Source: Infirmifilum lucidum
GTDB lineage: Archaea; Thermoproteota; Thermoprotei; Thermofilales; Thermofilaceae
NCBI RefSeq assembly: GCF_014876775.1
Contig: NZ_CP062310.1
Coordinates: forward strand, 1,527,699 to 1,591,698
DNA: 64,000 nucleotides
Direction: 5' to 3'
Of the stretch, positions 9,944-35,836 are shown piece by piece. Below the pieces are notes generated by a model. The model was given only the letters and a program-made list of their open reading frames with translations, did not search any database and had not been told where the DNA came from. The position numbers and the translations under genes were made by a program. How positions within the stretch are numbered: the first letter of the stretch is position 1; the number at the start of each line of letters is the position of its first letter.

Positions 9944-9946
9944 CCT

Positions 9947-17632: not shown

Positions 17633-18965
17633 CAGGACGCCCCCGACAGAGCTGGCCTTCGAGTTCGAAGTACTGGAGCCCGGGGCCATCGCCACGGGGG
17701 ACTTCGTCGAAGTCCCCGTAGAACGCGGGGCGCTGCTGGCCAGAGTCGCGGGGATGCAGGCGGTGAACGCCGCGTTCAGCGAACTGGGGGTCGTGACAGA
17801 GGCGAGCGAGTACGGCCTCAGGCTACCCAGCGCCGCCCTGCTCTCCTCCGAAGTGCACGTGGCAAGGGCGAGGGCCCTCGAGGTCATAACGGAAGACGGG
17901 GAGCTGGCACCGCCCCTGCACCCCCCGAGCCCCGGCACGCCGGTCTACAAGGCCTCAAGAGAGTCTATAAGCAGGCTCCTGGGCTTCAGGGAGGGGGGCG
18001 TCTGGCTGGGCGAGGTCTGGCACTCCGGCGTGGACGCCCTCCTGGATCCCGAGAGCCTCGTGTGCCACCACGTCGCAGTCGTCGGGGCGACAGGGTCGGG
18101 CAAGTCCCACACGCTCGGCGTCCTGTCTGAAGAACTGCTAGAGCACGGATACCCGGTCGTGGTGGTCGATGTCCACGGGGAGTACGGCTTCCTCGCGGAG
18201 GAGGGCTACAGGGCGAGAGCCCTGAAGCTCACGGGAGTATCTCTCAAGCCCGGCTTGCTGAGCCCGGACGCCGTGGCCGAGGCTACCGAGATGACTGAGG
18301 TTCAGCGGGATCTGCTACACCTCGCCTACGACGGGCTTGAAGGAGTAGAGCTCGGGGACGTTATCGAGAGCGTCGAGAGAGTGGCCCGGGAGTACGGCTT
18401 CCGCAGGGAGACGGTGGTGGGAGTCATAAGGAGGCTCAAGACGCTCAAGTCCATGGGCGTCTTCGCGGGCAGCGAGGGCGGTGTACCGCCAGAGGAGCTC
18501 GTGGAGGAGGGTAGCGCCACGGTACTCGAGGTAGGGCTGGGCCTTCCGGAGAGGGCGGTGAACGCCCTCGTGGGTACCGTAGTGTGGCTCCTCTTCGAGG
18601 CGAGGAGAAGCGGCGCCGTGCCTGGATTTGCCCTCGTAGTGGACGAGGCGCAGAGGTTCCTGCCGCAGGAGGAGGACACCTTCTCGAGGAGGGCTCTTAG
18701 AGTCTTGGCAAGGGAGGGCAGGAAGTTCAGAACCGGGATCATGGTGGCGAGCCAGCGCGTCGTGGGCCTGGACAAGGACGTCCTGAGCCAGAGCGGGACG
18801 AAGGTCGTCCTTAGGATGGACAGCGTCACGGACTTGTCGATGCTCAAGCTCCTCCTCGGCCAGAGCGCCAGGCTCGTCCCCCACCTCCCCCGGGGGGTAG
18901 CGATCGTCGCCGGAGTCACGGTGAGGTACCCGGTGATGGTCAAGGTGAGGGGCAGGAAGTCCTAG
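17607..18965 (+). CDS. herA: HerA-like hexameric DNA translocase ATPase
   Basis: A 452-residue ATPase. An N-terminal HAS-barrel region (residues 1-100) leads to the RecA-like core with Walker A GATGSGKSHT near residue 160 and DVHGEYGFL, the HerA signature after it. Walker B is FALVVDEAQRFLP near residue 345, and an Arg-rich segment REGRKFRTGIMVASQR follows. HerA moves on double-stranded DNA and works with NurA, whose relative is encoded just upstream in the same operon with a 26-base overlap. The start is GTG at 17607. The stop overlaps the converging cas4 stop by 4 bases. This may be a CRISPR-linked copy separate from the recombination-repair HerA, but the window cannot show whether another exists. 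Confidence 0.88.
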   Translation: MEKVGVVISRTPPTELAFEFEVLEPGAIATGDFVEVPVERGALLARVAGMQAVNAAFSELGVVTEASEYGLRLPSAALLSSEVHVARARALEVITEDGELAPPLHPPSPGTPVYKASRESISRLLGFREGGVWLGEVWHSGVDALLDPESLVCHHVAVVGATGSGKSHTLGVLSEELLEHGYPVVVVDVHGEYGFLAEEGYRARALKLTGVSLKPGLLSPDAVAEATEMTEVQRDLLHLAYDGLEGVELGDVIESVERVAREYGFRRETVVGVIRRLKTLKSMGVFAGSEGGVPPEELVEEGSATVLEVGLGLPERAVNALVGTVVWLLFEARRSGAVPGFALVVDEAQRFLPQEEDTFSRRALRVLAREGRKFRTGIMVASQRVVGLDKDVLSQSGTKVVLRMDSVTDLSMLKLLLGQSARLVPHLPRGVAIVAGVTVRYPVMVKVRGRKS

Positions 18966-19552
18966 GGCATCAGCTGCCTGCACAAGCGCCTGTAGTAGCA
19001 GTAGCCGCACTTCCAGCTCTGGACGCGCGGGGGTGGCTCCGGGGACGCCAGGCTCCGCCTCATGCTGCTCGCGAGGGACACGACATAGCTCCTGAGCGCC
19101 GGAGTCACCCTGACCTCGACGCGCCCCTCCGAGCCGAGGACTATAACTGCGTCGGCCGTCGCCTTGAGCGTCTCCTCCGCTAGCAGCGCGTAGGCCACGG
19201 CCTGCACCAGCACGTGCCTCGCCCTCCCGAAGAGGGATCTCCTCGTAACCCTAGTTAGCGCCTTCGCCTCAACCACCCTCACTAGCCCCCCTCTCTTCAG
19301 TACTGCATCCGCGAAGCCGTGGAGGCCTAGCGCCCTGCTCTTCACGTAGACGCTCCTGTACGCCTCCCAGCCGTCCGGAACCTCGAAGTCCGGAGCACCC
19401 AGCTCCGATGCTACGAGCATGGACGGCGTGGCGTACTCCCCGCCCACCCTGAACTGGAAGTACGCGTACCTGGGGCAGTAGGCGTACTCCTTGAGCAGCA
19501 CGACGGGCAGCAAGTCAAGCTCCTCCAGGCTATACAACGACACGGGCCACAC
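18962..19552 (-). CDS. cas4: Cas4 exonuclease
   Basis: A 196-residue RecB-type nuclease with an iron-sulphur cluster. The first Cys lies in EYAYCPR near residue 26, and the last three are in KCGYCYYRRLC at the C-terminus. The PD-(D/E)xK core is GFADAVL followed by VRVVEAKAL near residues 80-97. Cas4 trims and selects PAM-bearing prespacers before integration. It is the last gene of the minus-strand csa1-cas1-cas2-cas4 operon and overlaps cas2 by 23 bases. Confidence 0.92.
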   Translation of the reverse strand: MWPVSLYSLEELDLLPVVLLKEYAYCPRYAYFQFRVGGEYATPSMLVASELGAPDFEVPDGWEAYRSVYVKSRALGLHGFADAVLKRGGLVRVVEAKALTRVTRRSLFGRARHVLVQAVAYALLAEETLKATADAVIVLGSEGRVEVRVTPALRSYVVSLASSMRRSLASPEPPPRVQSWKCGYCYYRRLCRQLMP

Positions 19553-19811
19553 CCGCGAGCGGGGCCATGGGCCTCCCCGCGACTAGCGCCCGCTCAAAGC
19601 TCTCGTCGGGGACGACGAAGATTATAACGCTGTCGCCCTCGCCCCTCACGTAGCGCTGGATGAACCTGTACACGTCCTTCGCGTGCCCGTAGCCGCCCCT
19701 CCCCACGAAGGCGCTGCGCTGAACTCTCGTCAGGCCGAGCCCCAGGAGGCGGGACGCGAGCCTCTGCCTGTCGCCGTTGTCGCTTATGTCGTAGACAACT
19801 ACGAGCCTCAT
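19530..19811 (-). CDS. cas2: Cas2 integration-complex subunit
   Basis: A 93-residue ferredoxin-like protein with the usual opening MRLVVVYDISD, where Asp8 is the conserved metal-binding residue, and RVQRSAFVG at about residues 28-36. It forms the dimer that bridges two Cas1 dimers during spacer capture. It overlaps cas1 by one base and cas4 by 23 bases, so the adaptation proteins are translated together. Confidence 0.95.
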   Translation of the reverse strand: MRLVVVYDISDNGDRQRLASRLLGLGLTRVQRSAFVGRGGYGHAKDVYRFIQRYVRGEGDSVIIFVVPDESFERALVAGRPMAPLAGVARVVV

Positions 19812-20773
19812 CAGAACCTCGCCCTGAAGCCGACGTACTCCTGGAGCTCGCCCCTGAGGTACCTGGCGAGCTCCGAGGCCTTCCTCACAATGACGTCGTC
19901 GACTGTGGCCTTGCCGTTGAGGTACGGCACCTCCTTCTCCAGGGCCCTCATGACTACCTGCGCGACCCTCCTCCTGGACTCCCTATCCATCACCCCGTTC
20001 GAGACGGAGACGTCGGGCCTAGCGAACACGAGGGCCTTGTCCACCACAGGCCTGAACTGCTCTATGAAGTCGTAAACGAGCGTCCTTTGGCCGCTCTTCA
20101 TCGAGTGCATGAAGCCAGCGTAGGGGTCGAGCCCCACTAGCAGCAGCGCCCTCTCGCACCTCGCGTAGAGCACCCCGTAGCCGTAGTTCAACGCCATGTT
20201 GAACGGATCCAGGCCCTGGGGGTCTCTCCCCGTGAAGCCGTAGCCGCTGTCCTCGAGGAGCTTCGCTACAGCCCCCCAGTAGATCCTGGCCGCGTGGGCT
20301 TCGAGCTCCCTCAGCTCCAGCGGGTCAGGCCTGGCGCGCCTTATGTCGTCCGCTACCCTCTCCACGTTCTCTGCCTCCAACGCGTAGTAGTCGTCGCGCC
20401 TGGATCTGGCCGCGTACCTCAGCACGCTCGCCTGGTTCCTGACTTTCGCCTCCAGGATGCTCTTGGCAGCCCTGAGCCCCCTGCCGTCGAGTATAGCCTG
20501 GTACTGCGCGACCCTGGTAGCAGCGGTCTTGTTGATTATAGGCGGGTAGACCCTGGCCACAGGCATCCCGTGGGGGCCGAGGACGGTCAAGTCGATGCCC
20601 CTAGCAGCGAGCGCCTGCAGAGCTGCAGTAGTAATGCTAGCGGCCCTAGTCGCGACGACTACGGAGTCGTAGGTCGCGGAGCCCAGCTCCACTACGTCCC
20701 CGTCATGCGTCCTCAGCACGACCCTGCCCTTCTCGACCTTTATCCTGCAAGGCTTAGACACGAAGAGCAGCAT
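19811..20773 (-). CDS. cas1: Cas1 integrase
   Basis: A 320-residue integrase that inserts spacers at the leader end of the arrays. The catalytic residues are visible: Glu in LEAHAARIYWGAV, His in FMHSMKSGQR, and Asp and Glu in LVYDFIEQFRP. The N-terminal beta domain begins MLLFVSKPCRIKVEKGRV. The ATG at 20773 is preferred over an upstream in-frame start whose extra residues lie in csa1 coding sequence and look non-native. The gene overlaps the end of csa1 by 20 bases. Confidence 0.95.
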   Translation of the reverse strand: MLLFVSKPCRIKVEKGRVVLRTHDGDVVELGSATYDSVVVATRAASITTAALQALAARGIDLTVLGPHGMPVARVYPPIINKTAATRVAQYQAILDGRGLRAAKSILEAKVRNQASVLRYAARSRRDDYYALEAENVERVADDIRRARPDPLELRELEAHAARIYWGAVAKLLEDSGYGFTGRDPQGLDPFNMALNYGYGVLYARCERALLLVGLDPYAGFMHSMKSGQRTLVYDFIEQFRPVVDKALVFARPDVSVSNGVMDRESRRRVAQVVMRALEKEVPYLNGKATVDDVIVRKASELARYLRGELQEYVGFRARF

Positions 20774-21554
20774 GGCACACCCCCCTCCAGGGGCACCAAT
20801 CGGGACAGGACTCGGCCACGCCAGGATCCTCCCCCGACTCAACTATCCTGGCCACGGCGTCCCTGGCCTCCAGGAACCGCGACCTGACCCGGTCGTCCAG
20901 GATCACCGCGCGCCACAGGAGCCTGCCGCCCGCGTACTGCACGACGACCCCGTAGTTGACCGGGTTGTTCGACGCCGCCTCCACCGCCATCGCGTAGGCG
21001 GCGACAGCGAGCTCCTTCCTTTCGAGGCCGTTGCCGTAGACGAAGTCCACCGGAACCCCCGCGACGAGCAGGTCAGGCCTGACGACGTCCGAGAGGCCCA
21101 CGGGGCCGCCCGGCACCTCCGGCTCGACTGCCACGGGCAGCCTGGCCCCGCCCACGCCCCACGCCATGGCTAGGGCCGAGCTCGCGTCGAAGACCCTCGA
21201 GGCGGCACTCCTCAGCTCCCGGGGAGCCCCCCGCAGGAGCCTGGCCTTCGCCCCCGCGAGCCTCTCCAGGCTCGGGCCAGCCCTGAGGACGACCCTGAAG
21301 GGCTCCAGGAAGGCCTCGTGGAAGACCCTCCCGGCGAGTAGCACGCCGTCACTCGCGGGCTTCAAGCCTCTCACCCTCCTCAGGTAGACGTCGCGCTTCG
21401 ACGGGCAGGGGGACGAGACTTCGCTTACTGTGGGCATGAAGCCACGCCTGGGGCCGACGAGCTCGAGCCTCCACCCCCTGAGCTCGACTACTAGATCCCC
21501 GGCTACAACGCCTCTAACTCTCTCTAGCACAGGTGCTGGAAACATATTACTCAT
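20754..21554 (-). CDS. csa1: Csa1, Cas4-family adaptation protein
   Basis: A 266-residue Cas4 relative. A single Cys lies in SPCPSKRDVYLRR near residue 50 and three more in CPDWCPWRGVCH at the C-terminus, matching a four-Cys iron-sulphur cluster. RPDLLVAGVPVDFV marks the nuclease core around residue 165. In type I-A systems Csa1 acts with Cas1, Cas2 and Cas4 in spacer acquisition. It is the first gene of the adaptation operon. A TATA box at about 21580-21588 predicts a leaderless start at the ATG, with a palindromic site at 21555-21570 between them. It diverges from the leader of array 2. Confidence 0.88.
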   Translation of the reverse strand: MSNMFPAPVLERVRGVVAGDLVVELRGWRLELVGPRRGFMPTVSEVSSPCPSKRDVYLRRVRGLKPASDGVLLAGRVFHEAFLEPFRVVLRAGPSLERLAGAKARLLRGAPRELRSAASRVFDASSALAMAWGVGGARLPVAVEPEVPGGPVGLSDVVRPDLLVAGVPVDFVYGNGLERKELAVAAYAMAVEAASNNPVNYGVVVQYAGGRLLWRAVILDDRVRSRFLEARDAVARIVESGEDPGVAESCPDWCPWRGVCHAALRV

Positions 21555-21905: not shown

Positions 21906-24900
21906 GAAGAAGTCAAGAGACAATAGAAAGTAATTCGTAGCCGCGAATTATTAAATAACATCCACGAGAAAGGAAGAAGTCAAGAGACAATAGAAAGAGT
22001 GACGGTCACTGTAATAACGCGTCCGTCCACACTGATCCCACGAAGAAGTCAAGAGACAATAGAAAGCCTTCTCACTTTGTTGAGATCAACGAGTATGCGT
22101 TCAAAATTATGAAGAAGTCAAGAGACAATAGAAAGAAAGCGGGGCTCGGGGGGAGGGACTACGCCCTCCCTGTGAGCGAAGAAGTCAAGAGACAATAGAA
22201 AGTCCTCTAATTTCTCCGCGTCCACCATCGCGCGCTCGAAGAAGAAGTCAAGAGACAATAGAAAGTCTATGACGCGTGGCAGCACTGTCCTATACGGTAT
22301 CTCCAGTGGAAGAAGTCAAGAGACAATAGAAAGTAAAACCTGTAGAGTTTCCAATGTAGCCCGAAGAGGGCCCCGAGAAGAAGTCAAGAGACAATAGAAA
22401 GCAGTATTCGTAGGTAGCAGTGGTGTTTCCCCGTGTTTCCCCGGAAGAAGTCAAGAGACAATAGAAAGTTGCTCTACTATTACCTCACCTCCATCGACGC
22501 CAGAGAGGGAGAAGAAGTCAAGAGACAATAGAAAGAGTTGGCAGCAATGAAAGTAGCAGAACTAAGAAGTCCCTGTCGTTCTCGGGAAGAAGTCAAGAGA
22601 CAATAGAAAGTAACATGAAGGCAAGGATGACAGTATTTCGGAGTGACGTTTATGAAGAAGTCAAGAGACAATAGAAAGGCCGAAGACTTCCGTCACCCAC
22701 GTGTAGCGGTTGCGCCTGGAAGAAGTCAAGAGACAATAGAAAGCCCAGGTAGTACTCAATGATCGCCTTGTTAAACTCATCTGCCCACTTTATCGAAGAA
22801 GTCAAGAGACAATAGAAAGGATGAGCTTGTCACGCCAGTAAGGCATCACGTCTAAGCTCTTTGAAGAAGTCAAGAGACAATAGAAAGACAAAATGACTGT
22901 AACTACTCCCCTTTTCATCATGGTGGAAGAAGTCAAGAGACAATAGAAAGTGCTTTTCCTTTCCGTAGCTCCAGGGCTACTTCCTCAAGAAGAAGTCAAG
23001 AGACAATAGAAAGTTATCTGTGACGTTATGTACCGGTGTCCCCGTAACCCGTGAAGAAGTCAAGAGACAATAGAAAGTCCCATGTCCTGAAGGTAAAGAA
23101 CAGGCCGATCCCATACCTGGAAGAAGTCAAGAGACAATAGAAAGCTGGAGCTCTCCCAGCGCCCCTTCGACTACATCGAGGCCATAGAAAGAAGAAGTCA
23201 AGAGACAATAGAAAGCCTAAAGGACAGCGAAGTCCTGCACCGGGGGCATTTAAGAAGAAGTCAAGAGACAATAGAAAGCAAGAGTAGTTCAAGGTCTTCC
23301 TTGGAGATTATCCCCCGAAGAAGTCAAGAGACAATAGAAAGAGGATGTGGCGAGGCGCCTGGCCTCGATACTAGAAGAGCTGAAGAAGTCAAGAGACAAT
23401 AGAAAGAATAATCGCTTTATTGAAGCTGTCTGCCCACTTGATCAGAAGAAGTCAAGAGACAATAGAAAGTGCCCTCAACTCCTCCGGCCGTATCTCCTCC
23501 ACTCTATACCGAAGAAGTCAAGAGACAATAGAAAGATGTTTTCAAGGTCTCATGGACAAGCGGGGGTACGGGGTATTCGAAGAAGTCAAGAGACAATAGA
23601 AAGGAGGCCAACCTTACGCCACGTCTTATCGCCAATGACAAGGTAGAAGAAGTCAAGAGACAATAGAAAGGCCGAGGTTAGAAAGATGCTTGAGAGAGCA
23701 TTTCTGGAGGGAAGAAGTCAAGAGACAATAGAAAGTGTAATATCCCCAGACCAAATGATGGCGATAATTACAGATGGTGAAGAAGTCAAGAGACAATAGA
23801 AAGTTGCACCTTGGACACCTCGTGTCTTTCTTCCTCCCAGTATGAAGAAGTCAAGAGACAATAGAAAGGTACACTCCCCGTACACCACTCTGTACACTTC
23901 CCTGTACACTTGAAGAAGTCAAGAGACAATAGAAAGCATTCCCCACTCTCCGCAACGCCTCAAAGACCTCACTACCGAAGAAGTCAAGAGACAATAGAAA
24001 GCGCGAGTGCTCGCTCCCATGCGCCAGAGTCGATTGCTTCTAGAAGAAGTCAAGAGACAATAGAAAGTGGGTTCTCGCGCTCGCGGTAGCGGCCCCCCTG
24101 GCGGTCTCCCGAAGAAGTCAAGAGACAATAGAAAGATCTTCTCTGCATTGTACATCGCCCGCTCGAAGAGGGAAGAAGTCAAGAGACAATAGAAAGGAGA
24201 GGTACGGGTTTAGGATAAAGAAGTTCTTCGTAGAGAAGAAGTCAAGAGACAATAGAAAGCATAGCTCCCTTGATTATCCTGACGTCTTGTAAGAAAACCT
24301 GGAAGAAGTCAAGAGACAATAGAAAGTGACAAGACAGACGCCCGCTTGATCCTAGATTTAAGCACGAAGAAGAAGTCAAGAGACAATAGAAAGATTGAGG
24401 GAGTGCGTAACACTATTATCCAGGTAGTTAACGCGAAGAAGTCAAGAGACAATAGAAAGTGTGGGAGAAACTGAGAGGCCTCGCAGAATGGATGTTCTCG
24501 AAGAAGTCAAGAGACAATAGAAAGTAAGCCACTGGTAGAGTCGGTTAAAGAAAATGTAGCTGGCCGAAGAAGTCAAGAGACAATAGAAAGCAGAAATTGG
24601 TCTCAGCTAGTAAAGCTGTATAGGTAGAGAAGAAGTCAAGAGACAATAGAAAGAGGGAAGCCGTGAAAACGCTCGGGCCGTGCTGGAACTTTATGAAGAA
24701 GTCAAGAGACAATAGAAAGTTTTACCCGGGGCGTTTTGAAAACAGGGCTAGGGCCCACGTATTTTGAAGAAGTCAAGAGACAATAGAAAGTGTAAGCGAA
24801 GGGCAGAGCCAGCCGGGGTGCTCGTAGTATGAAGAAGTCAAGAGACAATAGAAAGCTAGTCACCTTGCGAGATGGTTACACTAGCCCGAATGCTGAAGAA

Positions 24901-27900
24901 GTCAAGAGACAATAGAAAGGTTCTGTCATTTTGCTTTCACCAACATAATAATATCCCTGAAGAAGTCAAGAGACAATAGAAAGAAGTACACCTCTGTACT
25001 GTCAACCCCCCTCTTTACCCTGAAGAAGTCAAGAGACAATAGAAAGGAGTGGGTGAAGACGAGTGATCGCCGTACCTCCAGTGGCTTGAAGAAGAAGAAG
25101 TCAAGAGACAATAGAAAGCTCTATGCCGACGGAGTAAGTCCACGCAGCCCTCTGTAGAAGAAGTCAAGAGACAATAGAAAGTCGTGTCAAATGATTTTGT
25201 ATATGTTTACATGCGTTGAGGATGAAGAAGTCAAGAGACAATAGAAAGTTGGATGTCAACAGCATGTATCCATACGTGATGGCGAATTAGAAGAAGTCAA
25301 GAGACAATAGAAAGTGCGGTGCGTACGACGTCCCAGGCCTCCTCCGGGTGATAGAGAAGAAGTCAAGAGACAATAGAAAGGTTGCTCCCCCACCTCTATG
25401 GTTATAGCCTTCTTCCCCTTCTGAAGAAGTCAAGAGACAATAGAAAGCGAGAGTTACTACAGGCGGAGGTTCGGCGTCTCTGGCAAAGAAGTCAAGAGAC
25501 AATAGAAAGCTGCTGCCAGGAGGTCTATGGTGGAGAGGAGGTCTTGGAGGAGGAAGAAGTCAAGAGACAATAGAAAGGACGCGCTTGACCAGCTCTACGG
25601 CGGCTTTGGCTCGAGGAAGAAGTCAAGAGACAATAGAAAGCTATACCCCAAACCCTGCTCCCTGAGTATGTCCAAGATTTCGAAGAAGTCAAGAGACAAT
25701 AGAAAGGTTGTTGACAAGACGTGGTACTGCAGAGTTCTCTGGGAACCAGAAGAAGTCAAGAGACAATAGAAAGTACTGCACGGGCCTAGACGACGCTACC
25801 CTCGGGCCCGAAGAAGTCAAGAGACAATAGAAAGATAGTTATTTTATAGGAGCAGGGGGGGCCGCTGGGAATGAATTAAGAAGAAGTCAAGAGACAATAG
25901 AAAGGACATCAATAACCACAAAGCGGTTCAGCAACGGTTCTGGGAGTGGAAGAAGTCAAGAGACAATAGAAAGTGTAACATTCCCCGCTTTCCCGAGAGC
26001 GGCCTTGACGGCAGAAGAAGTCAAGAGACAATAGAAAGTTTCCCCGGGAAAGAGAGGGAAAAAGAAAAAGAAAAAAAAAAGAAGAAGTCAAGAGACAATA
26101 GAAAGCCTCCCCCGGCTCCACAGACACTCTGGAGAACGCGGCGAGGGAAGAAGTCAAGAGACAATAGAAAGGCGGGCGGCATAGAGATCCCGTACAGCCC
26201 GACGCCACGCGTGGGAAGAAGTCAAGAGACAATAGAAAGGCCTCCGCGAGGGCCCCGAGACTGTCACGGGGGGCAGGTATGAAGAAGTCAAGAGACAATA
26301 GAAAGCCTGGGCCATCTCCGGCCTCACCACTGTTATTATATCCCTCGAAGAAGTCAAGAGACAATAGAAAGTCCTCGTGGAGGAGAGGTAAACAACTGCT
26401 GACAGAGAGCGGAAGAAGTCAAGAGACAATAGAAAGTGGGAACAGTCCGTCGTCGCTGGCGAAGACGAAAGCCGTGAAGAAGTCAAGAGACAATAGAAAG
26501 TCCAGGTACGCGGCCAGTTCGTTGATTATTTCGATGATGTTGAAGAAGTCAAGAGACAATAGAAAGTGGCTAGCCTCGCCGCCGAGCCGCTACCACCGGA
26601 TCCTTACTGAAGAAGTCAAGAGACAATAGAAAGTAACAAAGTTCCTATAGAATCCATCGGTATCTCCTCTGCTAGAAGAAGTCGAGAGACAATAGAAAGA
26701 TCACCGACAACAACCACAAATCCACATAAAAAACTGAAGAAGTCGAGAGACAATAGAAAGGCCTGTGTACCCGGCCTGATAAACACTTCCCCGAATAACC
26801 TGAAGAAGTCAAGAGACAATAGAAAGTTCGAATTCATCTTGGTTGAAATCGAAAGTGAATTTTGAAGAAGTCAAGAGACAATAGAAAGGAGTGGCAGTGA
26901 CATTATTAAGTCGACCAAATCAGAGGAAGAAGTCAAGAGACAATAGAAAGGCCCACGTGCGCCTAAAACATTTAAATAACTCTTTTTGAAGAAGTCAAGA
27001 GACAATAGAAAGCACGAGTCCCGGGACTTTCCCTGCCTCCTTTAATTTAATGAACTCCGAAGAAGTCAAGAGACAATAGAAAGCGTGATACTGATTGTCT
27101 GAATTACTTGCTGTGCTACGGCAGAAGAAGTCAAGAGACAATAGAAAGGCTTCAGAGGCCGGGCCTCCCCTCCCTCGAGGCCCTCAGCAGGAAGAAGTCA
27201 AGAGACAATAGAAAGTTTCGCAATGAAAGGCGATATGGCCCAATAACTGGCCCGCCAGAAGAAGTCAAGAGACAATAGAAAGCATGTTGGGATCGTAGTG
27301 TACGTCGAAGGCTGCCAGGGGAAGAAGTCAAGAGACAATAGAAAGCCGGCTCTGGGGCAAACAACTGTTTTAATAACTTTAAAAAGAAGAAGTCAAGAGA
27401 CAATAGAAAGACTCCACGACAGCCGACCTACGCCTCCTACGGCGCCGCGGCGAAGAAGTCAAGAGACAATAGAAAGGAAAGAAGGCGTGCATGTACACTG
27501 CCTCTGTCTTCCCGGAAGAAGTCAAGAGACAATAGAAAGTACCAATTTTTGTGGTCTCGACGGCCTCTTCAAGGAGGAAGAAGAAGTCAAGAGACAATAG
27601 AAAGTTCCTCGGAGAAGGACAAGACAGTGTCTGGGACACGAGGAAGAAGTCAAGAGACAATAGAAAGTCTTATAATTAACGATGAAAAAGCGCAGTTGTT
27701 CCTTTTGAAGAAGTCAAGAGACAATAGAAAGTGCAAAAATTTTCCCGCGGCTATCAATTAACATTCTCGCGAGAAGAAGTCAAGAGACAATAGAAAGGGA
27801 AGGCCTATGTCGAGCTAGTCTTCCAGCGCCCGGACGGAAGAAGTCAAGAGACAATAGAAAGCCATGCTGCAGGCCACCGGCATGCACCCCGCGCTGGTTC

Positions 27901-29134
27901 GAAGAAGTCAAGAGACAATAGAAAGTTACCCCCGTAAGCCACGAGGACGTACGTCCCGTTCGGCACGGAAGAAGTCAAGAGACAATAGAAAGCATGGAGA
28001 CTGCTCACCTCCTCTCCTCGTGGAGGAGAGAACAAGAAGAAGTCAAGAGACAATAGAAAGTCGAGAGCAGGGCCATGGCCGCGCCCGCCGCAGCGGCTGA
28101 CGAAGAAGTCAAGAGACAATAGAAAGGACAAGCCAGCGAATCAATGTCTCATTGATGCGCTCTGGAACCTTGGGAAGAAGTCAAGAGACAATAGAAAGCC
28201 TGGAACGCCTTCCCGGCCTGCGCCAAGGAGACAAGCGGAAGAAGTCAAGAGACAATAGAAAGGGGTGTGTCGGCCTCGGCCAGGGTCACCTGGGAGACGT
28301 TGAGGGAAGAAGTCAAGAGACAATAGAAAGATAGACTCCGGCTTGCCCGCCGCGAACTATACACTCGACGGAAGAAGTCAAGAGACAATAGAAAGTTTCC
28401 CATAATTTATGATGGTTTTTTCTCTGTTTCATGCTAGAGAGAAGAAGTCAAGAGACAATAGAAAGCCCAGGAGTAAGGTGGTCTTGGTTCCCACTTTCGT
28501 CTGAGAAGGAAGAAGTCAAGAGACAATAGAAAGGCAGGCCTCGTACTGCGCCGCTGGAACACCTGGGAGAAGAAGAAGTCAAGAGACAATAGAAAGGGTG
28601 TATTCGTAAATGATTCGTGGCTTGCATTAGACATTTTGGAAGAAGTCAAGAGACAATAGAAAGTTCGAACCTCCACACCCCGTGGAGACGGTCGTAGACG
28701 TACCGAAGAAGTCAAGAGACAATAGAAAGACGCCAGCTCGGTCGCCGGCGCCGGCTTCAGTTCAGTGAGAAGAAGTCAAGAGACAATAGAAAGTGTTAAA
28801 GTATACATTCACATCATCAACTGCATTCTTGAGAAGAAGTCAAGAGACAATAGAAAGGTTGACGTAATAAACGCCCTGAACTGTCACCACCTTAAGAAAA
28901 TGAAGAAGTCAAGAAGACAATAGAAAGGAGCACGTTGAGCGCATGAAAAGACTCGGGGAGATGCCGCTGAAGAAGTCAAGAGACAATAGAAAGCCATGAG
29001 GGCGCGGAGAGGCGTTACGCGTACTAAGACGCCGGAGACAATTGTGAAGAAGTCAAGAGACAATAGAAAGAGGAGGAGTTGTTTGGGCAATATCTCCTTT
29101 GGGCCATTGGAAGAAGTCAAGAGATGATAGAAAT
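21906..29134 (+). CRISPR. CRISPR array 2, 110 repeats
   Basis: I count 110 repeats of the same 25-nt unit as array 1 and 109 spacers averaging about 41 nt. Sequence variants include a first-base change at 25485, an A-to-G change shared by the neighbouring repeats at 26675 and 26736, a one-base insertion at 28902-28927 and a degenerate final repeat at 29110-29134. The variants lie far from the leader, as expected for old repeats. Several spacers encode homologous peptides or share hairpins with others (see findings). Apparent ORFs across the array are periodic artefacts. Confidence 0.98.
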
Positions 29135-29262
29135 AGGCAATCCGGGGGCAAAGTAAAATAAAATAAATAGGATGGGAGGCTGTTTCTTGCCGTCCTGGCC
29201 TGTGTGGCCGGCGGTGGATAGGTATTTTTGCCTTCTCGCCGTTGTCTTCGGGGGTGGTGGGC

Positions 29263-29886
29263 TTGGGCAGGCTGTTCGTGATAACGCTCGGCTTCGACGA
29301 GAAGTTCGCGGTGCGCGCGCTGATGAGGCGTGGCGTGGGGTGGGATGACGGCGTGGTCGTGTTCGTGCCCCGGGAGGAGGTGAGGGACGAGAGGGCTGAG
29401 AGGGCCCTGGACGCCCTGAGGAAGATCGTGGAGGGCCTCGTGGGGGGCGGGCTGCGGGAGGTCGAGCTGGAGGTCGGGGATCTCGTCAGCGCTGTCTCCG
29501 CTGTCCGCTCCACTGTTCTCTCGTACGGCGCCTCGGAGGTCTACGGGAGCCTCGGAGGGGGGATGAGGGCCCTCGTCGTGGAAGTCCTGCTTGGGCTGCT
29601 GATGCTCGAGGGCGTCAGGGTCTACGTGGACATCGACCTGGAGAGCGGGAGGGGCTACGTGAGCGTGCCCCTCCACGTCTTCAAGGCCCCGAGGAGGGAG
29701 AGGTGGGCCTCAATCCTGAGGCTCCTGGAGGCCGGGGAGGGCGTGCGGGGCGTGGCGGCTAAGACGGGCCTCTCCCCGGCCACTGTGAGCCGGGAGGTCA
29801 GGGAGATGAGGGCTTTCGGCCTGGTGGACGACGAGCTGAGGGTCACGGAGGCCGGGCTCCTCTACTTGCGCGTGCACTCCTCCTGA
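29263..29886 (+). CDS. csa3: Csa3 CARF-HTH transcription regulator
   Basis: About 207 residues. The N-terminal CARF domain begins LFVITLGFDEKFAVRAL and carries VYGSLGGGMRAL near residue 100, the ligand loop typical of Csa3. The C-terminal winged helix contains GVAAKTGLSPATVSREVREM. Csa3 proteins regulate adaptation genes and CRISPR transcription in Sulfolobales and can sense cyclic oligoadenylate. It stands alone between array 2 and the type I-A operon. The start is uncertain: TTG at 29263 follows a G-rich Shine-Dalgarno, and GTG at 29257 or TTG at 29242 are also in frame. The Sulfolobus-like N-terminus favours the shorter form. Confidence 0.87.
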   Translation: MGRLFVITLGFDEKFAVRALMRRGVGWDDGVVVFVPREEVRDERAERALDALRKIVEGLVGGGLREVELEVGDLVSAVSAVRSTVLSYGASEVYGSLGGGMRALVVEVLLGLLMLEGVRVYVDIDLESGRGYVSVPLHVFKAPRRERWASILRLLEAGEGVRGVAAKTGLSPATVSREVREMRAFGLVDDELRVTEAGLLYLRVHSS

Positions 29887-29907
29887 GCCGCAGCCCCCTC
29901 GACCCCT

Positions 29908-29938
29908 TGAAACAGCCTCTCTTTCTGTTTCATTTTTT
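29908..29938 (+). terminator. Hairpin with T-run after csa3
   Basis: TGAAACAG (29908-29915) pairs with CTGTTTCA (29925-29932) across a 9-nt loop and is followed by six T. This fits a terminator for csa3. The arms also resemble the TGAAA/TTTCA operators elsewhere in the island but with wider spacing, so a regulatory role for the type I-A promoter cannot be excluded. Confidence 0.5.
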
Positions 29939-30021
29939 AAAAACAATTATACTATTGTTGCACTGTGTTTAGACTCTCAACGAAACAAAAGTTTTTTATA
30001 GGGGCTTTGGATATTATAATT

Positions 30022-30396
30022 ATGGTGGCAAAAACCATGGGCACGGAGGTAAGTGGGTTGGAGGAGTTCGAGAGCATAGTCAGGGTGCTGCGGTTCTTCG
30101 CCGCTACGCGCAACTACAGCTTCCTGGACAGGATTGGAAACGCCCTCAACCCGGAGACTGTGGAGGTCGCGCTCCGAGATGCTCTGAGGACTTTCTCCTC
30201 GATCTACGACGCGTCGCCGGCCGACGAGAAGGGCCTCAAGTACTACGAGTACGAGGAGGGGAGGAGGATTCGCCTGCCCGCGAAGCCTAGCGAGGGCGAG
30301 GTCGCGGCCTTCCTCAGGGCGGTCTGGCAGGACGTCGGGGTGGCCAGGCGCGTGGCGATAATGGCCATGAGCGTCCCCGCTAGGGAGGAGAGGTGA
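30022..30396 (+). CDS. csa5: Csa5, small subunit of type I-A Cascade
   Basis: A 124-residue mostly helical protein beginning MVAKTMGTEVSGLEEFESIV, with FFAATRNYSFLDRIGNAL near residue 30. Length, composition and position before cas7 match Csa5, the small subunit that stabilises the R-loop in type I-A complexes. The ATG at 30022 is chosen over a more distal start because a TATA box (TTTTTTATA, about 29992-30000) predicts the transcript start at 30022-30025. Its stop overlaps the cas7 start in a TGATG junction. Confidence 0.8.
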   Translation: MVAKTMGTEVSGLEEFESIVRVLRFFAATRNYSFLDRIGNALNPETVEVALRDALRTFSSIYDASPADEKGLKYYEYEEGRRIRLPAKPSEGEVAAFLRAVWQDVGVARRVAIMAMSVPAREER

Positions 30397-31394
30397 TGGG
30401 CGTGGTCACGTTCCTGAGCGTGGGCGTCAGGTTCGAGGCGAACGTCGAAGCCCTCAACATGGTCGAGGTCAGCGGGAACTACGCCAGGCACAGGAGGGTT
30501 CCCTACGTGATCACCGAGGGGGGCAGGCTGAAGGTCGTCTACGTCCCAGCGGTGAGCGGCGAGAGCATCGCGCACGGGTACCAAGTGGCCCTCGCGGAGG
30601 AGGCCAAGGCGCTCGGCCTGCCGGTCTGCTCCTACTGCTCTATCGGCGAGTTCCTCAAGTCCATGGACGAGGAGCACGCTGCCGAGAAGTTCGACGGGAA
30701 GGTTCCCAAGCTGAGCGGCAGGAGTAAGAAGGAGGAGCTGGTTAGCGTCGTGGGGGAGATAGAGTCGGGCATCGTCAGGAAGTGCGTGGTCGAGGACGTC
30801 GGGGGCTTCCTCTACGCCGGGAACCCGCCGGTGAAGAGGACTTCGCGCTTCATGGTCAGCTACGCCCTGCCCATAAAGTCCGTGGCCACCTACGCCACGC
30901 TCGAGCCCCAGCTACACGCGCGCCACGCGAGGACGGCGGGCGAGAGGAGGGAGGGGGCCGCCGAGCAGATGATCTATTACGTCGAGACGGGCACCGCGGT
31001 CTACGGCTTCACGTTCAACCTGGACTTCGCCGGGGTAGGCGTGAGCAGCTACAGCGGGCGCGCCCTCGTCGACGACGTCAAGAAGAGGCGGCTCGCCGCG
31101 GCCAGGGCACTCTACAGGGTGCTCTCCTCGCAAGGCTTCGGGGCCAAGCTCTCGCGGTTCCTGCCGGGCGGCGGCGCCGTCGCCATGGTCGCGACCCTGA
31201 CGGAGAGGCCCTTCACTGTGACCTCGCCTATATACGACGGCTTCGCGGAGTCGACGAGGGAGAGGCTCGAGAGGGTCAAGGCGACTTTCGGCGAGAAGGG
31301 CTACTACTTCGAGATGGGCAAGGACGGCCTCAAGACCCCCGAGGACGTCCTCTCGGCCGTCATCGAGACGCTGAAGAAAGAGGGTACGATATAG
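30396..31394 (+). CDS. cas7: Cas7 (Csa2) backbone of type I-A Cascade
   Basis: A 332-residue Cas7 of the Csa2/DevR family. It begins MGVVTFLSVGVRFEANVEAL, has the SGNYARHRRVPYV and VPAVSGESIAHGYQ segments typical of the family, and the loop GNPPVKRTSRFMVSYALPI near residue 148. It forms the helical filament on the crRNA spacer. The start is ATG at 30396, overlapping the csa5 TGA by one base and preceded by GGAGAGG. A GTG one codon earlier is possible. Confidence 0.92.
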   Translation: MGVVTFLSVGVRFEANVEALNMVEVSGNYARHRRVPYVITEGGRLKVVYVPAVSGESIAHGYQVALAEEAKALGLPVCSYCSIGEFLKSMDEEHAAEKFDGKVPKLSGRSKKEELVSVVGEIESGIVRKCVVEDVGGFLYAGNPPVKRTSRFMVSYALPIKSVATYATLEPQLHARHARTAGERREGAAEQMIYYVETGTAVYGFTFNLDFAGVGVSSYSGRALVDDVKKRRLAAARALYRVLSSQGFGAKLSRFLPGGGAVAMVATLTERPFTVTSPIYDGFAESTRERLERVKATFGEKGYYFEMGKDGLKTPEDVLSAVIETLKKEGTI

Positions 31395-31404
31395 GGGGTT
31401 TAAA

Positions 31405-32142
31405 TTGGCCGGCTCTCTTTCTCTACGCTACGTCCTAGCCGAGGTGAGGCCGCACGGGGTAGTGTCCCTCAGAGTCCAGCCCCAGAGCAAGGCCAGGGCC
31501 AGCCTGAGGTACCCCTCCCTCACCTCGCTCTTGGGGGCCATCTCCTACCCGCTCGCCCGCGAGGACGGCAGAGAGGTTGTCGCCGCTGACGGCTCCGTCG
31601 AGCCCAGGAGCGCGGAGTTCAGGCGCCTCTTCGAGCACATTGCCGCGGAGGTCGTGGGCGAGGGCTACACTTACGGCTCGCTCTACAAGATCAACGAGTA
31701 CTACAGGGGCAAGGCGCTGCAGGCCGTGAGCGCTCTCTCGAACACCTTCCTCTACGGCGAGCAGGACTACAGGATCCGGATCCTCTACGTCCTCGCCGGC
31801 GGCGTGGGCGAGGGGGAGGCGAGGCTTGTCGAGAGAGCGGCCTGGGGCATCTCGAGGCTGGGCTCCCGCGAGTCCGTGGTCAGCGTCGAAGGCGTCTCGT
31901 CCGGCACGGGCAGGGTGTACGAGTCGGACTCTGTAGAGACTACTTTCTCCTTCGAGGTGAGGGACGGCATGGCCATCAAGGGCTCCTACGAGCTCATAGC
32001 GTCCCCCGACTGGCGCTCCGGGCCTCTCAGCGACATTAGCCGGGCGGCTAGGAAGAGGGTCGCGTACCCAAGGGGGAGAGTGAGGGTCGAGGGCAAGGGC
32101 CTGAGGGTGTTCGAGTTCGAGGAGGGGGTGGCGATCCTGTGA
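31405..32142 (+). CDS. cas5: Cas5a, crRNA handle-binding subunit
   Basis: A 245-residue RAMP of type I-A Cas5. It opens LRYVLAEVRPHGVVSLRVQP, then ASLRYPSLTSLLGAISYPL, where the hydrophobic helix after YPS is the Cas5 hallmark, and ends GRVRVEGKGLRVFEFEEG. It binds the crRNA 5' handle. It starts at TTG 31405 after a G-rich Shine-Dalgarno (GGGGGT), 10 bases after cas7. Its stop overlaps the GTG start of cas8a2. Confidence 0.85.
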   Translation: MAGSLSLRYVLAEVRPHGVVSLRVQPQSKARASLRYPSLTSLLGAISYPLAREDGREVVAADGSVEPRSAEFRRLFEHIAAEVVGEGYTYGSLYKINEYYRGKALQAVSALSNTFLYGEQDYRIRILYVLAGGVGEGEARLVERAAWGISRLGSRESVVSVEGVSSGTGRVYESDSVETTFSFEVRDGMAIKGSYELIASPDWRSGPLSDISRAARKRVAYPRGRVRVEGKGLRVFEFEEGVAIL

Positions 32143-33362
32143 CTGTCTCCCTGACTACCGGTCTGTTCTCCGAGCTGGTCTCGCAGGGCCTGGCGTACCT
32201 CTACGTCTACAGCCTCTACGGCGTCCCCCTGGACGACCCCAGCGTGGATCAGCGGGTGGCCGACATCTTCGAGTACGTGGTAAAAGAGCTTGAAAGGGAT
32301 AAGGAGTACCTGGCGAGTAGCGAGGTGGCCGGGCACTTCAAGTCGCACTACTTCGCGGGCGACAGGGGAGTCCTCCTGCGCTGGTACGGCGGCGGGGAGC
32401 AGCCTGCCCAGCACACCGAGCTCATGCTCTACGTGATGAAGGGGACTGCCGGGTTGCTTAGGCAGGGCCAGGTCTCCTTCGCGAAGAGCATGCAGGCCGT
32501 CAGCGGGCTGAGCTACGGCGTACCCTTCAAGGGCCTCATGGCAATTCCTCCGGCGATCATCAAGCAACCGGAGTTTTACGAGAAGCAGACGCTGTTCCTC
32601 AAGCCGACGAGCGGCCCCGACGCCGACATAGAGGTCGACCCCGTCTGGTTCGCCGTGCTGGCGCTGGGCTTCATGCTCGGCTTCGGCGGCTACTACGACG
32701 GCGCCTACCACGTGTTCACGAAGCCCGGCCTGCCCCCGACGCTCGAGGGAGTTTCCGCGGTGCCCCTGGACAAGCTTAAGGACATAGTCGACAGCTTAAG
32801 TACTCTCACGGCCGCCAGCAGGAGGGAGAGGCCTACGACCGTGTCGGAGGAGATATTCGCGCTCCAGCTGTCGATTGCCGTGGCCAAGTCCGAGCGCGCG
32901 CTGCCGCGCGAGGTCTTCCCGTTCTGCCTCTACGAGATCGAGTACATAGCGAACACCTACACTCTGACTAGGAGCGTCTTCGTGAACATCGAGCCCCTGG
33001 TAACCTACTTCGAGAAGTACTACGAGGTTCTGAGGAAGGAGGTTACCGGGCTGAGCAAGGAGGAGGCCCTCAAGCCCCTCAAGGCTGTCGTGGGTCTCGC
33101 GGCGCGGGAGCTGTCGGAGCGCTTCAAGCAGAGGGCTTCGAGGGAGGCGGGCGAGCCGCTGGCCTACCTATTCGTAAAGGACTTCTACAGGGCGGTGATG
33201 TCCGGTAACGCCAGGCTCCTGGAGGAGTCGCTCCTCAGGTTCCTGAGGGAGCTCGACGTCGCCCTGCACGCCAGGGAAGTGCCGAGGGAGTATAGAGACG
33301 ATTTGCAGAGGTTCAGGGGAGAGCGCAACGTCAAGGCTATGGTGGAGGCCGTGCTCAGATAG
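32139..33362 (+). CDS. cas8a2: Cas8a2-type large subunit of type I-A Cascade
   Basis: A 407-residue protein in the large-subunit position of the operon. It has no short diagnostic motif, but the mixture of a long N-terminal alpha/beta part, LSYGVPFKGLMAIPPAIIKQ near residue 130 and a helical C-terminus fits Cas8a2/Csa4 or the related Csx9 family. It should recognise the PAM and recruit Cas3. The start is GTG 32139, overlapping the cas5 TGA. The stop overlaps a degenerate CRISPR-repeat-like sequence at 33359-33383. Confidence 0.7.
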   Translation: MTVSLTTGLFSELVSQGLAYLYVYSLYGVPLDDPSVDQRVADIFEYVVKELERDKEYLASSEVAGHFKSHYFAGDRGVLLRWYGGGEQPAQHTELMLYVMKGTAGLLRQGQVSFAKSMQAVSGLSYGVPFKGLMAIPPAIIKQPEFYEKQTLFLKPTSGPDADIEVDPVWFAVLALGFMLGFGGYYDGAYHVFTKPGLPPTLEGVSAVPLDKLKDIVDSLSTLTAASRRERPTTVSEEIFALQLSIAVAKSERALPREVFPFCLYEIEYIANTYTLTRSVFVNIEPLVTYFEKYYEVLRKEVTGLSKEEALKPLKAVVGLAARELSERFKQRASREAGEPLAYLFVKDFYRAVMSGNARLLEESLLRFLRELDVALHAREVPREYRDDLQRFRGERNVKAMVEAVLR

Positions 33363-33383
33363 AAGCCAAGAGGCGGTAGAAAG
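33359..33383 (+). repeat. Degenerate CRISPR-repeat-like sequence upstream of cas3'
   Basis: This stretch matches the array repeat at 19 of 25 positions and keeps the 3' handle GTAGAAAG. It overlaps the cas8a2 stop and ends 23 bases before cas3'. No partner repeat lies at spacer distance downstream. The next similar words are at 33526 (17/25) and, further on, within cas3'. It is probably a relic or a repeat-derived regulatory site. Confidence 0.5.
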
Positions 33384-33406
33384 AGAGACGATGGAGGGGT
33401 GGTGGA

Positions 33407-35113
33407 ATGGCGCCCGGGAACTTCCTGCTCGAGTCCTACAGGCTCGTCGAGAGGGCTGCCAGGCGGGAGGGCGACGCGAGGAGGCCGCTGCTCGAGCGCT
33501 TCTTCGAGGAGGCGGCCCGGCGCCTAGAGGAGTCGGGAGACGGTAGGAAGAGGGAGGGTAGGGCCTTCCTCGCTGTGGTCAACGCGCCCACGGGCTACGG
33601 GAAGACTAGCCTGAGCCTGGCCTCTGCGGCCGCGTCGGCCCTGGACGCAAGCCTCTTCCCCAAGGTGATACACGTGCTGCCGCTCAGGTCCATAGTGGAG
33701 GACGTGGCCGGGAGGGCTGGGGCCCTGCTCGGGCCGCACGCTGTCGGCGTGAAGATGATGGGGGTCAGCGTGGAAGTCTTCCACACCTACCCCCTGAACG
33801 TCACGACAGTCGACACCTTCACTTTCGACCTCCTGAAGCTGAATACGAAGAAGCTCAGGAGGATCAGGGCGGGGGAGGAGTTCGGCTACGACTTCCTGAC
33901 GCAGGCCAGTATCCTGAACTCCCTGGTCGTGCTCGACGAGGCGCACTACGCGCTGGAGGAGGAGTACATGAGGGACGTGTTCTACCTCGTTCTCGATTTC
34001 CTCCTAAGCGTGAAGGTTCCCGTCGTCGTCATGACCGCTACCCTGTCGAGGGGCTACGAGGAGCTGTTGAGAGCCCTCGCCGAGTCCAGGGGCGTCGACT
34101 ACTTCAGGCTCGAGCCCGATGCCAGCGACCCCTACGTGGTGGAGCAGGCCCGCAAGGACGTAAGGGTGGAGTTTATGAGCGAGGAGGAGGCGCTGGGTGC
34201 GGCCAGGAGTCAAGAGATAGTGGAGAGGGGGAGGGTGCTGGTCGTGGCCAACAACCCCTACAGGGCCACCTGCATCTTCGAGAGGCTCAGCAGGAGGGGC
34301 TTGAAAGCGCTACTCCTCCACGGCAAGATGACCCCGTCGCACAAGAAGAGGGTTCTCGGCCTAGTTGAGGAGATGGAGAGGCGCGGGGAGAGCTTCGTGC
34401 TCGTCGCCACGCAGGTCGTGGAGGCTGGCGTGGACGTGAGCTTCGACACCCTGGTTACGGATCCGGCGCCGGCGTACAGCCTCATCCAGAGGGCGGGGAG
34501 GGTTGCGAGGAGGCCGGCGGAGAGGAGCGGCAGGATCATAGTCGTCGAGGACGGCCCGGCAGAGCCCTACGACAGAGTGAAGGTCTTGAGAACCCTCGAG
34601 TGGCTCGAGGAGAATCGCGACGTTTTCAACCCGCGAGTTCCGGGCACGTACTCTGACTTGCTGGCCCGAGTCCACGGGAGCAGGTCAACCGAGGTTCTTC
34701 CGGGCAGCTCGAGGCTCAGCGGGGTCAAGCTCGAGCTCTTCGACCCCCTGAGCAGGAGCTTCGACGTCTTCGAGGAAGTAGTCGAGATTGTCAAGAGGGA
34801 GCCTTTCCTAAGAGAGTTCAACCTACCCGTAGAGGTGGGCGGGGAGACCGTCCTCCTCACCCCCCGCGAGGCCTACGACCTCTACGAGCGGGGGCTCCTC
34901 CGAGTAGGCGGTGACGGGCTCGAAGGGGAGGAGCCGGGGGACGGTAGAAAGGAAGGGATAGACTTCTACGAGCTGGCCAAGCAGGTGGCGCTCGGCAAGG
35001 ATGTTAGACTGGAGTTCGCCGGCTCCTACGACCCCGTTAGGGGGCTGGCAGAGTGCCGGGCGATAGATGACGAGAAGGGGTCAAGAGACAACAGAAAGGG
35101 AAGGGGGAGTTAG
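33407..35113 (+). CDS. cas3': Cas3' helicase of type I-A
   Basis: A 568-residue superfamily 2 helicase. Motif I is NAPTGYGKTSLS near residue 58, motif II VLDEAHYAL near 180, motif III MTATL near 207, and motif VI ends LIQRAGRVARRP near 365. The HD nuclease is encoded separately by the next gene, as usual for type I-A. It unwinds DNA after Cascade binding. The ATG at 33407 follows GGAGGGG. Oddly, the C-terminal tail EKGSRDNRKGRGS is encoded by a CRISPR-repeat-like stretch (35074-35098, 22/25 match), which adds a basic end not expected for the family. Confidence 0.92.
   Translation: MAPGNFLLESYRLVERAARREGDARRPLLERFFEEAARRLEESGDGRKREGRAFLAVVNAPTGYGKTSLSLASAAASALDASLFPKVIHVLPLRSIVEDVAGRAGALLGPHAVGVKMMGVSVEVFHTYPLNVTTVDTFTFDLLKLNTKKLRRIRAGEEFGYDFLTQASILNSLVVLDEAHYALEEEYMRDVFYLVLDFLLSVKVPVVVMTATLSRGYEELLRALAESRGVDYFRLEPDASDPYVVEQARKDVRVEFMSEEEALGAARSQEIVERGRVLVVANNPYRATCIFERLSRRGLKALLLHGKMTPSHKKRVLGLVEEMERRGESFVLVATQVVEAGVDVSFDTLVTDPAPAYSLIQRAGRVARRPAERSGRIIVVEDGPAEPYDRVKVLRTLEWLEENRDVFNPRVPGTYSDLLARVHGSRSTEVLPGSSRLSGVKLELFDPLSRSFDVFEEVVEIVKREPFLREFNLPVEVGGETVLLTPREAYDLYERGLLRVGGDGLEGEEPGDGRKEGIDFYELAKQVALGKDVRLEFAGSYDPVRGLAECRAIDDEKGSRDNRKGRGS
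35074..35098 (+). repeat. CRISPR-repeat-like sequence inside 3' end of cas3'
   Basis: It matches the array repeat at 22 of 25 positions, with changes only at repeat positions 5, 6 and 19, all transitions. It lies in the same orientation as both arrays and is translated as part of the Cas3' C-terminus. Such a match is far beyond chance. It marks a repeat insertion, or recombination between an array and the operon. Confidence 0.85.
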
Positions 35114-35116
35114 CGG

Positions 35117-35836
35117 GTGAGGGGGGCGGGCGTGGAGTGCGCGGCATACTTCAAGGACGGCCAGCCGGTTCAGTCGATGAGGGAGCACGTGCTCGGGGGG
35201 CTCGGCTACATCGAGAGGAACTACCTCTCGCGCAACTACGGCGCGTACCTCTCGCGGCTAGCCAGGGCGGCGGGGCTCGGGGCCGACGAGGCGCTCGCCC
35301 GGAGGGCCCTCGTGGCGTCTTACGTGCTCCACGACGCCGGCAAGCTGCTGGAGTACTTCCAGAGGAGGCGCAAGGACTTCAGGGGGCACGAGTTTTTCTC
35401 GGCCGCTATCGTCGTGCGCTGCTGCGGGCTGGAGGGCCTGGAGCGCGCCGCGGCTATTGCCGTGCTGCTACACCACCACACAATGCAGCGCGACGTCGGC
35501 TACCGCGGGAGCAATATCAGGATGAGGGAGGAGTGCGCGGCGGAGCTGGAGCGGATCCTCGAGGAGCACGCCGGCATCCGGGCCGTGCTGCCGCGGGAGC
35601 TGAGCGTGCAGGAGGTCAAAAGGGTGAGTGAGGACTTGCTCAGTATCAAGTACGATGACTGGCCCCTGGTGAGGGTCGTCTACGCCATCCTGGAGCCCCT
35701 CACTCTCGCCGACCACTACGCGGCTAGGCTTAGGGGCGGTGAGGGGACTCTTCTGGGCGGCGAGGCCGAGAGGGTCGAGCGCGCCATCGCGTCGTTGCGG
35801 CTGAGCTTCTCCGCGACCGGGCTATCGCGGCCCTGA
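35117..35836 (+). CDS. cas3'': Cas3'' HD nuclease
   Basis: A 239-residue HD-superfamily nuclease. MREHVLGGLGYIERNY supplies the first His, YVLHDAGKLLEYF near residue 72 the HD pair, GHEFFSA near 91 and AVLLHHHTM near 117 the remaining metal ligands. It degrades the displaced DNA strand together with Cas3'. It starts with GTG 35117, 3 bases after the cas3' stop, and is the last gene of the type I-A operon. Confidence 0.92.
   Translation: MRGAGVECAAYFKDGQPVQSMREHVLGGLGYIERNYLSRNYGAYLSRLARAAGLGADEALARRALVASYVLHDAGKLLEYFQRRRKDFRGHEFFSAAIVVRCCGLEGLERAAAIAVLLHHHTMQRDVGYRGSNIRMREECAAELERILEEHAGIRAVLPRELSVQEVKRVSEDLLSIKYDDWPLVRVVYAILEPLTLADHYAARLRGGEGTLLGGEAERVERAIASLRLSFSATGLSRP

What the first reader, a model, noticed from the sequence alone, without database searches (positions are those of the whole stretch)
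25249..25289. Spacer encoding motif A of a protein-primed family B DNA polymerase
Read in plus orientation the spacer translates as LDVNSMYPYVMAN. DxxSxYP is motif A of family B polymerases, and DVNS(L/M)YP is typical of protein-primed polymerases such as phi29, also known in ampullavirus-type archaeal viruses. The host has therefore probably met a virus or plasmid with such a polymerase.
Basis: partly seen in the sequence, partly recalled or inferred. Interest (0 to 1): 0.55.

Follow-up and report, generated by a model that had tools for sequence, protein, structure and literature searches.

The report
Archaeal CRISPR memory of polymerase virus
An archaeon stores in its CRISPR array a fragment that spells the active-site motif of a virus-type DNA polymerase, and at least one other stored fragment matches a second gene of the same little-known virus-like group, so its ancestors have probably met a virus that is not in the collections searched.

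Summary
Bases 25249-25289 are spacer 51 of 109 in a CRISPR array (21906-29134) and read LDVNSMYPYVMAN. The motif is not chance: a profile built without the spacer scores it 30.8 bits, the next of 153 spacers 5.5, and 0 of 1,086,233 shuffles reach it. DVNSMYPYVM occurs in 13 viral contigs, in frame in all 13; 12 of 13 are confirmed relatives of protein-primed polymerases. No DNA protospacer was found; the best DNA match is 33 of 41. Four metagenome-bin contigs (L100, L102, L118, L119) carry related DNA_pol_B_2 polymerases, three with motif LDVNSxYPYVM. A second spacer of the same array (22820-22862) matches, in frame, a long coiled-coil protein that three of these contigs also encode (score 63; 9,180 shuffles, maximum 47). 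A third (24002-24042) probably matches a third shared gene. The cas genes are type I-A and III-D. Most likely the spacer is immune memory of an unsequenced, perhaps chaacvirus-like archaeal virus. Spacers against such polymerases are known from Odinarchaeum, so this is a new case of a known kind.

The parts
25249..25289 (+). [quoted passage not shown] the crRNA has the sense of the polymerase mRNA
22820..22862 (-). Spacer A2_14: minus-strand reading KSLDVMPYWRDKLI, matches the long coiled-coil protein of the same contigs (L100 RALDVMPFWREKLI, L118 RALDIMPYWREKLK)
24002..24042 (-). Spacer A2_32 (probable): minus-strand reading EAIDSGAWERALA, matches a 144-164 aa protein shared by L102 and L100
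   Evidence: score 44, 0 of 9,180 shuffles reach it in the profile search; homology of the two proteins; only 44 without the profile, equal to a spurious hit
28199..28237 (+). Spacer A2_96 (weak candidate only): WNAFPACAKETS resembles a downstream polymerase stretch
   Evidence: 0.15 expected by chance; not significant
21906..29134 (+). CRISPR array A2: 110 repeats GAAGAAGTCAAGAGACAATAGAAAG, 109 spacers; last repeat degenerate, leader side at the low end (inferred)
4004..6907 (+). CRISPR array A1: 45 identical repeats, 44 spacers
29242..35836 (+). Type I-A interference genes: Csa3, Cas11a, Cas7a, Cas5a, Cas8a, Cas3 helicase, Cas3 HD
   Evidence: PADLOC models; Pfam
18962..21554 (-). Adaptation genes: Cas4, Cas1, Cas4a/Csa1
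7130..15046 (+). Type III-D effector genes: Csm2, Csm3-like, Cas10, Cas5 III-D
15270..16094 (-). Cas6 (crRNA processing)

Best explanation
The spacer is immune memory. The I-A/III-D CRISPR system of this archaeon took up a 41-bp piece of the polB gene of a small DNA virus that replicates by protein priming, right at the catalytic motif A. The virus belongs to the same loose group as contigs L100, L102 and L118: a DNA_pol_B_2 polymerase, a long coiled-coil protein and, in two of them, a 144-164 aa protein. Spacer A2_14, and probably A2_32, were taken from other genes of the same or a related virus. Shown: the spacer, its in-frame match to such polymerases, a second spacer in frame with a linked gene, and the cas genes. 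Inferred: that the source is a virus rather than a plasmid, that it is one virus, and that the spacers still protect. Because A2_51 has the sense of the mRNA while A2_14 and A2_32 are antisense, A2_51 should act only on DNA (type I-A), whereas the other two could also serve the RNA-targeting type III-D complex (established knowledge of the types, recalled).
For: Peptide match and chance controls. PF03175 over the cut-off in L100, L102, L118 and L119. Motif A reads LDVNSMYPYVM in L118 and L119 and LDVNSEYPYVM in L100. A2_14 scores 63 against L100 in frame; reversed spacers 40 at most, 4,590 and 9,180 shuffles 47 at most; in 859 kb of 86 other contigs, fetched by the same kind of peptide pattern, A2_14 reaches only 36 and no spacer but A2_51 exceeds 52. 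The long protein is rare: 3 of 398 phylum genomes, and in 2 of those 3 the contig also carries the polymerase. Profile search: A2_51, A2_14 and A2_32 exceed all 9,180 shuffles (maximum 42).
Against: No nucleotide protospacer: best 33 of 41 for A2_51, 28 of 42 for A2_14. No PAM could be read. No PF03175 gene over the cut-off in any of the 81 genomes of the class, and 159 spacers of 2 congeners hold no such match. The family contigs come from metagenome bins of other lineages, one of them labelled bacterial (L119), so their hosts are unproven. A2_32 rests on the profile score alone. L102 has a variant motif A (LDVHGMYAW).
Confidence: 0.87

Rival explanations
1. The target polymerase sits in a non-viral element (linear plasmid or casposon-like transposon), not a virus.
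For: DNA_pol_B_2 genes are found in several genomes of the phylum (28 of 398 over the cut-off); that casposons and plasmids carry such polymerases is recalled, and a casposon paper appeared in a search listing only.
Against: A2_14 matches a long protein with weak similarity to phage tape-measure proteins that is linked to the polymerase on three contigs; the polymerases of the large archaeal cluster read YDINSAYP, not LDVNSxYPYVM.
Confidence: 0.1
2. The two or three spacers come from different elements: one from a polymerase virus, the others from viruses that share only the long protein.
For: Relatives of the long protein without a polymerase occur in the class (L157, L158, L159).
Against: In those relatives the stretch matched by A2_14 is not conserved and A2_14 is not among the best hits; only the L100/L118 type carries LD(V/I)MP(F/Y)WREKL.
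Confidence: 0.25
3. The target is a phi29-like bacterial phage or a larger polymerase that is not protein-primed.
For: The best DNA match is L007, 33 of 41, whose host is unknown but which looks bacterial to me; FDVNSMYP also occurs in 811-885 aa polymerases.
Against: No other spacer matches those contigs above background; the larger polymerases continue NLFVQ or similar, not YVM.
Confidence: 0.05
4. Chance: an unrelated spacer that happens to translate as motif A.
For: The motif was spotted after the fact among 153 spacers and six frames.
Against: 0 of 1,086,233 shuffles; the independent second spacer.
Confidence: 0.02

Closest known systems
Odinarchaeum yellowstonii spacers against the protein-primed polymerase of Muninn virus (PMC9246712; parts 1 and 2 of 4 read)
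   Same: [quoted passage not shown] three spacers match a viral protein-primed polymerase gene
   Different: There the spacers match DNA exactly and the virus has a His1-like capsid protein; here only protein-level matches and a different set of linked genes
Chaacviridae of methane-oxidising ANME-1 archaea (PMC9894754; 12 passages read)
   Same: Hydrothermal archaeal viruses of 10-11 kb with a protein-primed polymerase and an uncharacterised protein encoded upstream of the capsid gene; L102 (11.5 kb) has the small shared protein directly before a 383-aa ORF
   Different: No chaacvirus sequence was available; no terminal repeats found on the contigs; the 383-aa ORF matches nothing
Archaeal virus LCBv1, OM716002 (Yellowstone)
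   Same: Best-scoring named relative of the L118 and L100 polymerases among the rows seen, 31-33% identity
   Different: Motif A reads YDFNSLYPSVMKN; 6 kb; no match to any spacer
Methanosarcina spherical virus
   Same: Polymerase 26-33% identical to L118 and L100
   Different: Methanogen virus, distant; its other genes were not compared

Membership tests
CRISPR spacer of a I-A/III-D locus | Unique stretch between regular repeats beside cas genes | tested here: met
CRISPR spacer with a known target | Matching DNA protospacer with PAM in a mobile element | tested here: not met
   no DNA protospacer in phages, plasmids, class genomes or the IMG/VR pattern scans; protein-level match only
Protein-primed family B polymerase (PF03175) as the target gene | Motif A DxxSxYP in the spacer | tested here: met
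Protein-primed family B polymerase (PF03175) as the target gene | The geothermal genes compared with the spacer score over the Pfam cut-off | tested here: met
   L100, L102, L118, L119: 4 of 4
Protein-primed family B polymerase (PF03175) as the target gene | Terminal protein priming of a linear genome | not testable with these tools
   biochemical; no complete target genome
Chaacviridae (for the L100/L102/L118 group) | Genome of 10-11 kb with a protein-primed polymerase | tested here: inconclusive
   contigs of 8.7, 11.5 and 7.9 kb, completeness unknown
Chaacviridae (for the L100/L102/L118 group) | Inverted terminal repeats | tested here: inconclusive
   longest terminal inverted match 9 bases, but the contigs may be incomplete
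Chaacviridae (for the L100/L102/L118 group) | Double jelly-roll capsid protein | not tested
   no sequence match for the L102 383-aa ORF; no structure was predicted
Ampullaviridae | Similarity to bottle-shaped virus proteins | not tested
   no ampullavirus among the tblastn rows seen (7 of 7; 30 of 107); no direct comparison made

The most novel reading that the evidence does not exclude
An undescribed family of small protein-primed archaeal viruses, marked by the polymerase, the long coiled-coil protein and the 144-164 aa protein, infects the lineage of this archaeon, where none of the 81 held class genomes shows such a polymerase; the array records it at three or more genes.
Probability: 0.5. 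Interest if true: 0.6.

Novelty: new member of a known kind. Interest (0 to 1): 0.45.

Why it matters
It ties an archaeal host lineage, from spacers alone, to a virus type not seen in the genomes of its class, and gives three gene signatures with which to look for the virus in hot-spring and vent metagenomes. It also shows that protein-level matching of a whole array can find the target family where DNA matching fails.

Tried and rejected
DNA-level search of the whole A2 array in phages (none) and plasmids (three matches of 30-35 nt at E 0.6, taken as chance), and of array A1 in phages (8 records, E 0.9, taken as chance). The spacer alone against phages gave 41 partial matches, none covering 80%; two of the records listed by name (Pseudomonas phage Psa21 and Bifidobacterium phage BadAztec1) have them under a DNA polymerase, not significant. 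DNA matching of all 153 spacers to fetched contigs: only A2_51 clearly beats reversed controls. PF03175 in the class: two weak hits are cellular-type polymerases with DFSSMYPSIM or DFTSMYPSIM. Viral-contig searches with the L100 polymerase, the L100 long protein and the LCBv1 polymerase found nothing; alignment A1 found 13 relatives, 12 of them contigs already known. The second-half pattern YPYVMAN gave four contigs, one of them L007; the other three were used only as control sequence. The L100 polymerase in the class of G349 gave 2 of 256, one weak, and the long protein 1 of 256. Spacers of two congeners: 159 recovered from the stretches fetched, no match; G032 lists 65 reverse repeats and only 14 lay in the stretch that I took, so part of its spacers were not seen. 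A2_96 and A1_39 were considered and not counted. Identity of the window organism: no call names it; a Thermofilum-like archaeon is my guess from recalled features.

Full report
Observation. The stretch 25249-25289 is a 41-nt spacer between perfect repeats and reads LDVNSMYPYVMAN in plus frame 1. It is number 51 of 109 in array A2; a second array, A1, has 44 spacers. The genome is a single contig of 1.63 Mb. The flanking genes match type I-A (Cas11a, Cas7a, Cas5a, Cas8a, Cas3 in two parts, Csa3), adaptation (Cas1, two Cas4), Cas6, and type III-D (Csm2, Csm3-like, Cas10, Cas5) models.

Chance. A motif-A profile built from 16 distinct sites in genomes found by Pfam PF03175, not by the spacer, scores this spacer 30.8 bits; the next of 153 spacers has 5.5, and 0 of 1,086,233 shuffled spacers reach it (maximum 23.4). 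A scan of 2.9 million viral contigs for all codings of DVNSMYPYVM found 13; in 13 of 13 it lies in frame in an open frame of 249-629 codons, and 12 of 13 were recovered as relatives of protein-primed polymerases by tblastn (the thirteenth, L008, has only a short frame, 249 codons, near its contig end). The best DNA identity is 33 of 41 (L007), then 32 (L005), so none is the source. A scan for L/F-DVNSMYP gave 56 contigs; many are larger polymerases, 811-885 codons where complete, that continue differently, and two hits, L025 and L032, lie in short frames. So the core alone is not specific to protein-primed enzymes.

Relatives from hot places. The pattern LDVNSxYPYVM in 84,980 species genomes gave three loci: L118 (titled Archaeoglobales MAG, Guaymas), L119 (Bipolaricaulota MAG) and L120 (Bacilli MAG). 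A phylum search with PF03175 (28 of 398 over the cut-off) gave L071, on contig L100 of G349, with LDVNSEYPYVM, and L102 of G285 with a variant motif. The polymerases of L119 and L100 are 42% and 36% identical to that of L118, and all four (with L102) are over the PF03175 cut-off. L100, L102 and L118 also share a long coiled-coil protein (E 3e-82). It is weakly like phage tape-measure proteins, an effect that coiled coils can produce by composition. L100 and L102 share a 144-164 aa protein (E 2e-21). The long protein was found in 3 of 398 phylum genomes; two of the three are G285 and G349, on the contig with the polymerase.

A second spacer. All 153 spacers were translated in six frames and compared with eight polymerase contigs, L034, L100-L103, L118, L119 and L121. 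A2_51 scored 64 and A2_14 63: KSLDVMPYWRDKLI against RALDVMPFWREKLI, in frame in the long protein of L100. Next best 44; reversed-spacer control 40. In 4,590 shuffles against three contigs and 9,180 against the ORFs of four, the maximum was 47. In 86 other contigs (859 kb, against 32 kb for the four family contigs) A2_14 reached only 36, and no spacer but A2_51 exceeded 52. Since L118 and L119 were chosen through A2_51, and L100 and L102 through a Pfam search for its gene, A2_14 is independent support. With family profiles, A2_51 (58.7), A2_14 (53.7) and A2_32 (44.0, the 144-164 aa protein) exceed all 9,180 shuffles (maximum 42.0); the fourth spacer, at 36, is within chance. Without profiles A2_32 scores 44, the same as A1_39, which lies on the opposite strand of L100 and is rejected. 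The 144-164 aa protein was also added to the profile set after A2_32 had been seen to touch it, so A2_32 is called probable, not proven.

Mechanism. The crRNA of A2_51 has the sense of the polymerase mRNA and so should pair only with DNA, which fits type I-A. A2_14 and A2_32 are antisense and could in principle also guide the type III-D complex. The degenerate last repeat and the position of cas1 put the leader at the low end (inference). The PAM cannot be read without a real protospacer.

What does not fit or is missing. No DNA protospacer in anything searched. No such polymerase over the cut-off in the 81 genomes of the class. No match in 159 spacers of two congeners. The hosts of the family contigs are only bin labels, one of them bacterial. 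Relatives of the long protein without a polymerase exist in the class (L157-L159), so A2_14 could stem from another virus.

Known ground. Spacers against a protein-primed viral polymerase, from a I-A/III-D archaeon, are described for Odinarchaeum (PMC9246712, parts 1 and 2 of 4 read). Chaacviruses (PMC9894754, passages read) share size, polymerase and a small protein before the capsid gene, but no sequence of theirs could be compared. Four paper searches joined Thermofilum or Thermoproteales with protein-primed, CRISPR or virus polymerase terms; the listings show no title on such a virus of this lineage (listings only; the papers were not read, and the lineage itself is my guess). The verdict is therefore a new case of a known kind, with a possibly undescribed virus family behind it.

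Noticed in passing
35073-35098 and 15088-15113: Single repeat-like sequences outside the arrays: one (+) inside the end of the Cas3 helicase gene, one (-) just after the last type III-D gene. They might be array remnants or guide-like regulators of cas genes.
   Followed up: no
26039-26080: Spacer A2_63 is mostly a run of A and G, a low-complexity stretch unusual for a spacer.
   Followed up: no
L157, L158, L159: Contigs in bins of the same class encode relatives of the long coiled-coil protein; L157 appears also to carry ParB-like and Cas4-like genes (by eye). None showed the polymerase.
   Followed up: partly
L102:9720-10868 (-) and 10901-11332 (-): A 383-aa ORF directly after the shared small protein matches no family or structure by sequence; its place recalls the capsid gene of chaacviruses.
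   Followed up: partly
1557-2327 (-): A CARF-domain (Csm6/CARF7-like) protein near the type III-D genes suggests cyclic-oligonucleotide signalling.
   Followed up: no
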